Of a stretch of DNA of 64,000 nt, positions 25,327 to 40,260 are shown piece by piece. The first letter of the stretch is position 1; every line of letters starts with the position of its first letter. The stretch covers positions 1 through 64,000 of the forward strand of contig CANPXN010000002.1 of NCBI GenBank assembly GCA_947586185.1, written 5' to 3'. A program made the translations under genes and the position numbers. The DNA comes from an uncultured Clostridia bacterium. GTDB lineage: Bacteria; Bacillota; Clostridia; Oscillospirales; Ruminococcaceae. The notes under the pieces were generated by a model, which saw only the letters and a program-made list of their open reading frames with translations, made no database searches and was not told the DNA's origin.

Positions 25327-25419
25327 AATTCCATCCTTTCGATGTCAGAACTTGTTCTTAACGTTCATCTTTCTGTACTAAGCTTATAGGCAGTGATCCA
25401 CTGCGGAGCTTATTAAAAT

Positions 25420-25562
25420 TTAGGGCAAGATGTCCTCCGCCATTTAGGTGAGGGCACCATTTCCGTATTCAGTAAGTGATACGATCCCTTGCTAAATACT
25501 CCGTGCGGCTAAAGCCGCACCTTGCCCACGTTAAATGACGGGACAAGCCCCTTATTTAATTA
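25420..25562 (-). repeat. 143-bp structured interspersed repeat, copy A
   Basis: About three quarters identical to 40118-40260 over the full 143 bp, both starting TTAGGGCAAGAT and ending in an AATTA on the plus strand. Read on the minus strand it folds. An outer stem is GGGCAAGGTG with CATCTTGCCC, enclosing a perfect hairpin GTGCGGC-TTTA-GCCGCAC and a third stem GTATTTAG/CTGAATAC. It lies between lexA and zapA, 3' of a minus-strand gene as in copy B. It has no coding potential. Confidence 0.75.
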
Positions 25563-25620: not shown

Positions 25621-25636
25621 TGTGCGGTGTTGCCTT
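25621..25636. mobile_element. Remnant end of the MITE-like element
   Basis: TGTGCGGTGTTGCCTT is identical to the outer 16 bp of the right end of the element at 5544-5704, and a following TAA is also shared. The adjacent inner sequence has diverged. The lexA stop codon (25635-25637) falls at the tip, so the end of lexA was set or trimmed by this element. Confidence 0.5.
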
Positions 25637-26219
25637 AAAAGTATCTCACAAGGGCAACGACCTTTCCGGCAACCTCCATTTCCTTAACTATGATCGGGTC
25701 CATAGTGTCGTTTTCCGGCTGGAGCCGGAAGTATCCGTCCTCCTTGTAGAAGGTTTTTACAGTTGCCTCCTCCTCATCGTTTACAAGGGCAACGATTATG
25801 TCGCCGTTTTCAGCATACGGAGTCTGCTCCACGATAACAATATCGCCGCTGAAAATACCTGCGTTTATCATACTGTCGCCTCTGACTTTAAGTGCAAAAA
25901 GAGGATTGCTGTAATTCCTGTCGCCTTTAAAGCTTATGTAGTCGGTTATATTTTCTATCGCTGTAATAGGGGTTCCTGCGGCAACAGTTCCTACAAGAGG
26001 AACCGCTCCGCTGGTGTAGCCTGTAAGCTTTATGGCACGGTTGTGGTTGTCGATCTTTTCAATATAGCCCTCGTCAACCAGCATGGAAATATATCTGTGA
26101 ACAGTTGAAGTTGACTTTATGCCCAGCGCAGTGCAGATCTCTCTTACAGTGGGCGCATATCCGTCGTCGATACGGTTCTTTATATATTCGTAAATTGCAG
26201 TAGCTTTTTCATTGAGCAT
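25635..26219 (-). CDS. lexA: LexA repressor
   Basis: 194-aa SOS repressor. An N-terminal winged helix-turn-helix (about 1-65, TVREICTALGIKSTSTVHRYI) is joined to the autocleavage peptidase domain. The Ala-Gly scissile bond is in GTVAAGTPI, the catalytic serine in RGDSMINAG and the lysine in EATVKTFYK. It lies 3 bp downstream of murC with no promoter of its own visible, so SOS autoregulation must act through an upstream promoter or is absent. No GAAC-N4-GTTC box was seen locally. Confidence 0.93.
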   Translation of the reverse strand: MLNEKATAIYEYIKNRIDDGYAPTVREICTALGIKSTSTVHRYISMLVDEGYIEKIDNHNRAIKLTGYTSGAVPLVGTVAAGTPITAIENITDYISFKGDRNYSNPLFALKVRGDSMINAGIFSGDIVIVEQTPYAENGDIIVALVNDEEEATVKTFYKEDGYFRLQPENDTMDPIIVKEMEVAGKVVALVRYF

Positions 26220-34208: not shown

Positions 34209-34253
34209 TATAGTTTCACCTCCGATTATGTTCTAATCGTATCAGGATAATGC

Positions 34254-34377
34254 AAAAAGCCTTTTCCCGGAATCCGAGAAAAGGCAGAATAATTACTTAA
34301 ATTACCATGCACATTCCTCGGCTGGATTTACGGCAAAAGCCACCAGCTGTCTTTAGAATACGATTTGTTTTAACAAC
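34254..34377 (-). ncRNA. L10 leader (rplJ autoregulatory RNA)
   Basis: On the minus strand the leader contains AAGACAGCTGGTGGC (complement ends at 34353) and CCAGCCGAGGAAT (34313 onward), the conserved core of the L10 leader family. L10-L12 binds such sites. It is followed by an attenuator hairpin GCCTTTTC/GAGAAAAGGC (34259-34285 region) with TTTTTG. The order of promoter, leader, terminator, rplJ fits transcription attenuation. Confidence 0.9.
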
Positions 34378-40013: not shown

Positions 40014-40117
40014 TGTGAACAATTTTAAAGTCGCACAAATTTCAATATTAATTTTTGTTTATTCAATACATGCGCTGAATCGGATTGTAACCGAACTGTA
40101 ATTGCACCTGTAATAAC

Positions 40118-40260
40118 TTAGGGCAAGATATCCCACTCCTTTTAGGCGAGGATACCATTTTTGTATTCAGTAATTGATGCAATACATCACTGAATACTCC
40201 GTGTGGCTAAAGCCGTATCTTGTCCAAGTTTAATGAAAGGGCAAGTCCCTTATTGAATTA
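40118..40260 (-). repeat. 143-bp structured interspersed repeat, copy B
   Basis: Same length and about three quarters identical to 25420-25562. On the minus strand the outer stem is GGACAAGATA with TATCTTGCCC and an inner hairpin is GTATTCAGTGATG/CATC-AATT-ACTGAATAC. The last three bases of the plus-strand copy are the argS stop codon, so the element begins exactly at the end of argS. Nothing else is evident in 40014-40117. Confidence 0.75.

What the first reader, a model, noticed from the sequence alone, without database searches (positions are those of the whole stretch)
25420..25562. 143-bp structured repeat, copy A, with compensatory base change relative to copy B
Copies at 25420-25562 and 40118-40260 have identical length and about 75% identity. 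In the outer stem, one closing pair is G-C here (GTG/CAT) but A-T in copy B (ATA/TAT), while the helix is retained. A CTTG(T/C)CCC upstream segment could pair with the same CAAG strand instead, giving a switch-like choice. Both lie 3' of minus-strand genes (lexA, argS). This suggests an RNA-level repeat family rather than chance.
Basis: partly seen in the sequence, partly recalled or inferred. Interest (0 to 1): 0.62.

Follow-up and report, generated by a model that had tools for sequence, protein, structure and literature searches.

The report
Hairpin-folded jumping DNA in gut Clostridia
The two matching 141-base sequences are old copies of a small, protein-less jumping DNA element that folds into several hairpins, inserts right after the letters ATAA, and has spread to dozens of copies per genome in many gut Clostridia, apparently as a stripped-down relative of the IS605 family of single-strand transposons.

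Summary
Copies A (25419-25559) and B (40117-40257) are 80% alike and share one fold. They belong to a dispersed family: about 20 copies in this genome, up to 79 in a relative, and members in several families of the order. A model built without any sequence from this genome finds A and B (E = 1e-9 and 2e-5). Compensatory changes are extensive: the outer helix has 17 different 5' arms, 95% paired with their own partner versus 48% when partners are swapped.

The family is mobile DNA. Four precise empty sites and several nested insertions show insertion directly after ATAA, with no target duplication. The element starts with C (or T) and ends in TTGAA. There are no terminal inverted repeats, nothing outside the junctions is conserved, and orientation is biased with replication strand. 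A 25-nt terminal hairpin also occurs alone after ATAA. The left end is homologous to left ends of IS605-type (ISEfa4-like, tnpA+tnpB) elements.

Best reading: a PATE-like, non-autonomous single-strand transposon family moved in trans by a Y1 transposase. The mobilising enzyme was not proven.

The parts
25419..25559 (+). Element copy A (141 nt), old and diverged copy
   Evidence: 90% identical to the family query; model R2, built without sequences of this genome, E=1.4e-9
25415..25418 (+). Left junction AAAA, decayed from target ATAA
   Evidence: Position homologous to the invariant ATAA of other copies
25423..25429 (+). Outer helix P1, 5' arm GGGCAAG (copy A)
   Evidence: Fold; partner specificity across lineages
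25430..25460 (+). Hairpin P2 (copy A); same hairpin as the left end of IS605-type elements
   Evidence: Fold; homology
25465..25499 (+). Hairpin P3 (copy A)
   Evidence: Fold; covariation
25503..25520 (+). Hairpin P4 (copy A)
   Evidence: Fold; covariation
25521..25527 (+). Outer helix P1, 3' arm CTTGCCC (copy A); can alternatively pair with GGGACAAG at 25540-25547
   Evidence: Fold; alternative pairing test
25531..25559 (+). Right-end hairpin P5 ending TTATTTAA (family TTATTGAA) (copy A)
   Evidence: Fold; right-end profile
40117..40257 (+). Element copy B (141 nt), right end abuts the argS stop codon
   Evidence: 86% identical to the family query; R2 E=1.5e-5
40113..40116 (+). Target ATAA left of copy B
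   Evidence: Sequence; flank profile; empty sites
40121..40127 (+). Outer helix P1, 5' arm GGGCAAG (copy B)
   Evidence: Fold
40128..40158 (+). Hairpin P2 (copy B), carries the compensatory A-T for G-C
   Evidence: Sequence and fold
40163..40197 (+). Hairpin P3 (copy B)
   Evidence: Fold
40201..40218 (+). Hairpin P4 (copy B)
   Evidence: Sequence and covariation
40219..40225 (+). Outer helix P1, 3' arm CTTGTCC (copy B)
   Evidence: Fold
40229..40257 (+). Right-end hairpin P5 ending TTATTGAA (copy B)
   Evidence: Fold; right-end profile

Best explanation
A and B are old copies of a non-autonomous mobile element of the PATE kind (short, palindromes near the ends, no terminal inverted repeats, no target duplication), related to IS605-type single-strand transposons. 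SHOWN: precise insertion after ATAA without duplication; the element runs from a pyrimidine to TTGAA; both ends are kept in deletion derivatives; a 25-nt right-end hairpin also occurs alone after ATAA; orientation bias relative to GC skew; the left end (target-AAC, P1, P2) is homologous to the left end of ISEfa4-like tnpA+tnpB elements. INFERRED: a Y1 (HUH) TnpA supplied in trans binds the hairpins of the single-stranded top strand, most likely on the lagging-strand template. The conserved GTTGAAT before the right-end hairpin acts as guide: GTT pairs with AA|C at the left boundary, and the adjoining bases pair with the right end. TnpA excises the strand as a circle and joins it 3' of a new ATAA. 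In this genome no Y1 gene was found and the copies have decayed, so A and B are probably inactive.
For: Empty sites: L158 vs L187; L217 vs L318, L271 vs L303/L315, L394 vs L395. Nested insertions exactly at another member's ATAA: L123, L338, L344, L255. Flank profile: ATAA at least 94% per base, TTGAA ending, no other conserved position. Orientation: element strand on the G-rich strand in 54 of 73 (p=5e-5), 54 of 70 with clear skew (p=6e-6), while gene-strand bias is weaker, 46 of 73 (p=0.03); G248 16 of 19 with clear skew (p=0.004). Internal deletion derivatives keep both ends. 25-nt mini-elements: 11 preceded by exact ATAA in three genomes. IS605 left-end homology: L190 45.5 bits, L410 41.9, L478/L479 30-31, versus a maximum of 22.9 in 340 shuffles and 15-17 for IS200-type controls; 307 vs 0 matches for the L190 left end and its shuffle. 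The same left-end anatomy is seen in viral-contig IS605 elements. G248, with 79 copies, carries such an element with an intact 135-aa tnpA frame. IS608 precedent for target choice by base pairing, insertion 3' of a tetranucleotide, right guide GAAT (PMC5934647). PATE definition (PMC3119063).
Against: Y1 genes are missing from several copy-rich genomes (G044, G210, G314, G152), and Y1 presence is hardly enriched in carriers: 8 of 15 versus 152 of 394 overall. No autonomous element with the ATAA/TTGAA ends was found among about 60 right ends with up to 3.5 kb upstream. The IS605 elements have a different target (TTTAAC) and right end (about TCAC). To my knowledge PATEs are not described as keeping internal hairpins such as P3 and P4, so their conservation is unexplained. 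Orientation bias is absent in U.9_2 (14 of 25) and in unfiltered G248 (23 of 38). MAG assemblies distort repeats.
Confidence: 0.78

Rival explanations
1. RNA-level family: copies encode a structured RNA or cis-element with a switch between two pairings, acting near lexA and argS.
For: Strong + strand RNA fold, compensatory change, alternative pairing of the P1 3' arm above swapped partners, G-U more frequent than A-C in helices P1, P4 and P5.
Against: No Rfam match. Copies stand in many unrelated places in either gene orientation with no conserved neighbours. Precise empty sites and a fixed insertion target. G-T wobble is tolerated in single-stranded DNA as well. For copy A the only promoter-like match lies on the opposite strand outside the element and is within chance.
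Confidence: 0.1
2. Mobile element moved by a RAYT / TnpA-REP enzyme, i.e. REP-like repeats.
For: Single 25-nt hairpins occur as independent units; a RAYT-like 253-aa protein is present in RUG11951 and a 49% relative in RGIG9115.
Against: That protein is absent from 17 of 19 genomes tested, including copy-rich G043, G044, G045. No GTAG/GTGG foot at the hairpin. Left end matches IS605-type elements instead.
Confidence: 0.05
3. Spread by reverse transcription of a structured RNA (group II-intron-like or other retroelement).
For: Structured strand, lagging-strand-like orientation bias also seen for retrohoming (general knowledge), base-pairing near both boundaries.
Against: No 5'-truncated series: derivatives lose the middle and keep both ends. 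25-nt copies exist. No group II intron family hit.
Confidence: 0.03
4. Other recombinase with a 2-bp AA core (serine recombinase IS607-like or IS110 with bridge RNA): AA at both boundaries would be the crossover core.
For: Boundaries ATAA|...TTGAA| share AA, so a 2-bp core cannot be told from no duplication.
Against: No conservation right of the insertion point; left end homologous to Y1-type IS605 elements. These enzyme families were not searched for.
Confidence: 0.04

Closest known systems
PATEs (palindrome-associated transposable elements) of Haloquadratum walsbyi, PMC3119063
   Same: No terminal inverted repeats, palindromes near the ends, no target duplication, too short for a transposase, palindromes similar to IS605-type elements, core-deleted short versions; other small inserts target the near-terminal palindrome (seen here too in P2).
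   Different: Different domain of life and sequence; here a long-range helix P1 and inner hairpins P3/P4 are kept by compensatory change, and target/right end differ from the IS605 elements in hand.
IS200/IS605 family, ISEfa4-like group (tnpA Y1 + tnpB)
   Same: Left end: T(T/A)TAAC, short spacer, P1, hairpin P2 with CCCCNCCTC..GGNGG; 83% over 48 nt between L190 and G248 copies.
   Different: No genes; target ATAA instead of TTTAAC; right end TTATTGAA after a GACGGGGC hairpin instead of TCAC after a CCACCTCTATAGGTGG hairpin.
IS608 (H. pylori), PMC5934647
   Same: Inserts 3' of a 4-nt target kept in the left flank; ends fold as single strands; right guide GAAT just before the right hairpin, as in GTTGAATGACGGGG here.
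   Different: Target TTAC, right end TCAA, autonomous.
REP / REPIN with TnpA-REP (PMC6006769, PMC3116915)
   Same: Short hairpins in many copies between genes, moved in trans, solo hairpins.
   Different: No GT[AG]G foot, no matching REPtron, defined 141-nt composite unit.
MITEs
   Same: Small, non-autonomous, intergenic, many copies.
   Different: No terminal inverted repeats and no multi-base target duplication.

Membership tests
PATE | no terminal inverted repeats | tested here: met
   Left end ATAA|CTTAGG..., right end ...TTATTGAA| are not inverted repeats
PATE | palindromes close to both termini | tested here: met
   P2 near left end, P5 at right end
PATE | no target duplication | tested here: met
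   Four empty sites; a 2-bp AA duplication cannot be excluded formally
PATE | too short to encode a transposase | tested here: met
   About 113-200 nt; no long copy among about 60 inspected
PATE | end palindrome similar to IS605-type elements | tested here: met
   Left end only; right end not similar
PATE | moved by an IS605-type TnpA in trans | not testable with these tools
   Needs an assay; co-occurrence of Y1 with the family is weak
IS200/IS605 (autonomous member) | carries tnpA and/or tnpB | tested here: not met
   No such gene between the ends
IS200/IS605 (autonomous member) | insertion 3' of a fixed 4-5 nt target kept at the left | tested here: met
   ATAA
REP/REPIN | GTAG/GTGG foot and cognate TnpA-REP | tested here: not met
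   No such foot; RAYT-like gene in 2 of 19 genomes
MITE | terminal inverted repeats and target duplication | tested here: not met
Known RNA family (Rfam 15) | score above gathering threshold | tested here: not met

The most novel reading that the evidence does not exclude
The element is more than a pair of transposase-binding ends: the long-range helix P1, its competition with the 3' tail, and hairpins P3/P4 are kept by compensatory change in lineages whose sequences share almost nothing there. The folded strand (ssDNA or RNA) may therefore have a function of its own, for example bringing the two ends together and timing strand transfer, in a single-strand transposon with an ATAA target and no recognised transposase of its own.
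Probability: 0.3. Interest if true: 0.7.

Novelty: new variant of a known kind. Interest (0 to 1): 0.52.

Why it matters
No Rfam family matches it, and the searches of the held literature found no description of it, although it reaches 79 copies in a 2 Mb genome and occurs in several families of the order. It gives near-identical copies, empty sites and mini-elements with which to test how single-strand transposons recognise targets by base pairing and how non-autonomous copies parasitise them. It is also a warning: strong RNA-like covariation at intergenic sites in these bacteria can come from a DNA transposon, which matters for scans for new regulatory RNAs and for assembly of such genomes.

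Tried and rejected
Rfam search at gathering and relaxed thresholds: no family. RAYT/TnpA-REP as general mobiliser: absent from most carriers. IS200-type TnpA genes in carriers: their own ends differ. TnpB PF07282 as constant partner: 1 of 12 genomes; the G248 element has an interrupted tnpB. Y1 co-occurrence with the family: weak. Autonomous copy with the same ends: none found. Plasmid and phage collections: no similar DNA. Apparent internal deletions in RUG11951 copies were set aside as probable scaffolding artefacts (runs of N, repeated joins). Model R1 had a poor automatic structure and R2 replaced it. The arms for the covariation count were picked by hand as pairing arms, so only the comparison with swapped partners is informative. 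Model R2 does not recover IS605 left ends as full matches; the homology rests on sequence.

Full report
OBSERVATION. Copies A and B exist as described, with the same length and a common fold. BLAST gives 80% identity. As + strand RNA, copy A folds at -59.4 kcal/mol (z = -7.1, 0 of 200 shuffles as good) and B at z = -4.3. The fold is an outer helix P1 (GGGCAAG/CTTGCCC) around hairpins P2, P3 and P4, followed by a right-end hairpin P5. Judging by other copies, the exact element is 25419-25559 and 40117-40257 (141 nt each). The flanking genes lexA and argS are confirmed; the argS stop codon directly follows the right end of B.

A FAMILY. The own genome holds 14 BLAST matches and 26 model matches at E<=1. 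Relatives hold versions with the same layout but different helix sequences. An exact 23-nt core from P2 hits 110 stretches in GTDB genomes, mostly Clostridia MAGs, with many near-identical copies in RUG11951, U.9_2 and UBA11956. A right-end pattern gives 46, 32, 21 and 15 copies in G042, G043, G045 and G005, and none for the reversed control pattern. Model R2, built only from G005, G043 and G045, finds copy A at E=1.4e-9 and B at 1.5e-5 and no further full copy in the window. It finds members in 15 of 394 genomes of the order, in six of its families, at a strict threshold, and 79 copies in G248. No Rfam family matches.

COVARIATION. In 23 representatives P1 has 17 different 5' arms and 19 different 3' arms. 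Arms pair with their own partner at 95% of positions and with swapped partners at 48%. P3 gives 95% vs 47% and P4 96% vs 60%; P5 hardly varies. Arms were chosen by eye as pairing arms, so the swap is the control that counts. The bases AAC at the left boundary can pair with a GTT just after P1 in most lineages. In the G000 and G248-like lineages and some others the 3' arm of P1 can alternatively pair with the 3' tail. Over 15 lineages this exceeds swapped partners (0.0006 of shuffles reach it), but it is only 3 nt in three lineages.

IT MOVES. Four empty sites were found: L158 vs L187, L217 vs L318, L271 vs L303/L315, and L394 vs L395. In each, the empty allele reads ...ATAA (or a one-base variant) joined directly to the right flank, and the filled allele has the element starting with C and ending in TTGAA between them. 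Several insertions sit exactly at the ATAA boundary of another member. Flank profiles show ATAA on the left at 94% or more per base, TTGAA as the end, and nothing else on either side. Shortened copies lose the middle and keep both ends, down to 56 nt. A 25-nt unit, TGACGGGGCNNNGCCCCTTATTGAA, occurs alone after exact ATAA at least 11 times in three genomes.

SINGLE-STRAND SIGNATURE. The folded strand lies on the locally G-rich strand in 54 of 73 copies of three genomes (p = 5e-5; 54 of 70 where the skew is clear, p = 6e-6). The bias toward the gene-rich strand is weaker (46 of 73, p = 0.03). In G248 it is 16 of 19 with clear skew (p = 0.004) but 23 of 38 overall. If the G-rich strand is the leading-sense strand, as is usual in Firmicutes (general knowledge), the folded strand is the lagging-strand template, the strand that IS608 and ISDra2 use (PMC6006769).

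LINK TO IS605. Upstream of tnpA in the IS605-type elements (tnpA+tnpB) of G046 and G248 lies a left end that aligns with the family's left end. L190: TTTTTTAACCTAAATGGGCAAGAAGTCCCCCGCCTCAAAGGCGGTGGG. G248 copy: TTTTATAACTTAGGCAAGATGTCCCCCGCCTCAAAGGCGGCGGG (83% over 48 columns, E=1.5e-7; 307 matches, none for its shuffle). In a direct test L190 and L410 score 45.5 and 41.9 bits; the best of 340 shuffles scores 22.9 and IS200-type controls 15-17. The same left-end anatomy (TTTAAC, P1, P2, P1') recurs in ISEfa4-like elements of viral contigs. Their target and right end differ (TTTAAC, about TCAC). In IS608 the cleavage sites are read by base pairing with guides, not by the protein (PMC5934647), so such shifts are plausible. 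The IS608 right guide GAAT also precedes the right-end hairpin here.

MECHANISM. The best account is a PATE-like element (definition in PMC3119063) moved in trans by a Y1 transposase. Shown: mobility, target, ends, orientation bias, left-end homology. Inferred: the enzyme, the ssDNA circle, the guide role of GTTGAAT. Against it: Y1 genes are missing from several carriers, and co-occurrence (8 of 15 carriers vs 152 of 394 overall) is weak. A transposase lost after use, or missed in fragmented genomes, would explain this, but so would an unknown enzyme.

WINDOW COPIES. This genome (100% complete) has no Y1 match, its copies are diverged, and the left target of A has decayed to AAAA. A and B are most likely inactive fossils with no demonstrated role for lexA or argS.

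VERDICT. A real and so far undescribed family, as far as Rfam and the held literature show; new variant of a known kind. The conserved internal hairpins remain the unexplained and most interesting part.

Noticed in passing
window 25623-25637; L147 3050-3270; L158, L187, L090: A second, unrelated small repeat with inverted ends TAAGGCAACACCGC...GCGGTATTGCCTTA lies inside or beside family members in four strains. Its terminal 15 nt (TGCGGTGTTGCCTTA) also form the stop-codon end of lexA in the window.
   Followed up: partly
L277, L279, L282, L284-L286, L292, L295, L296 (U.9_2) and L090: A recurrent insert of about 60 nt (TCTCGCCTGTCGGCTCGGTCGG...GTGTCCACCGGACACCCGCAC) sits in the P2 hairpin of many copies and at the same place in another species. 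It resembles the SMR-A inserts that target near-terminal palindromes of PATEs in Haloquadratum (PMC3119063).
   Followed up: no
L452, L462, L467, L398, L403 (G248); L209, L235, L043 (G005); L351 (G043): 25-nt mini-elements TGACGGGGCNNNGCCCCTTATTGAA directly after ATAA; the full-length element looks like a core ending in GTTGAA plus this unit, each ending in TTGAA.
   Followed up: partly
L364, L377, L387, L394, L395 (G210): Here the element sits inside a larger repeat of about 260-400 bp (GTCTGTAGAAAAAGGTCAAT...), which also occurs without it.
   Followed up: partly
L038, L041, L062, L240, L246, L280, L289: The right end often lies just upstream of a ribosome-binding site and start codon (TTATTGAA|GGAGG..ATG), so insertions may place a strong hairpin in a 5' UTR.
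   Followed up: no
window 34244-34374 -: Ribosomal protein L10 leader (RF00557, 71.2 bits), the only Rfam hit in the window.
   Followed up: no
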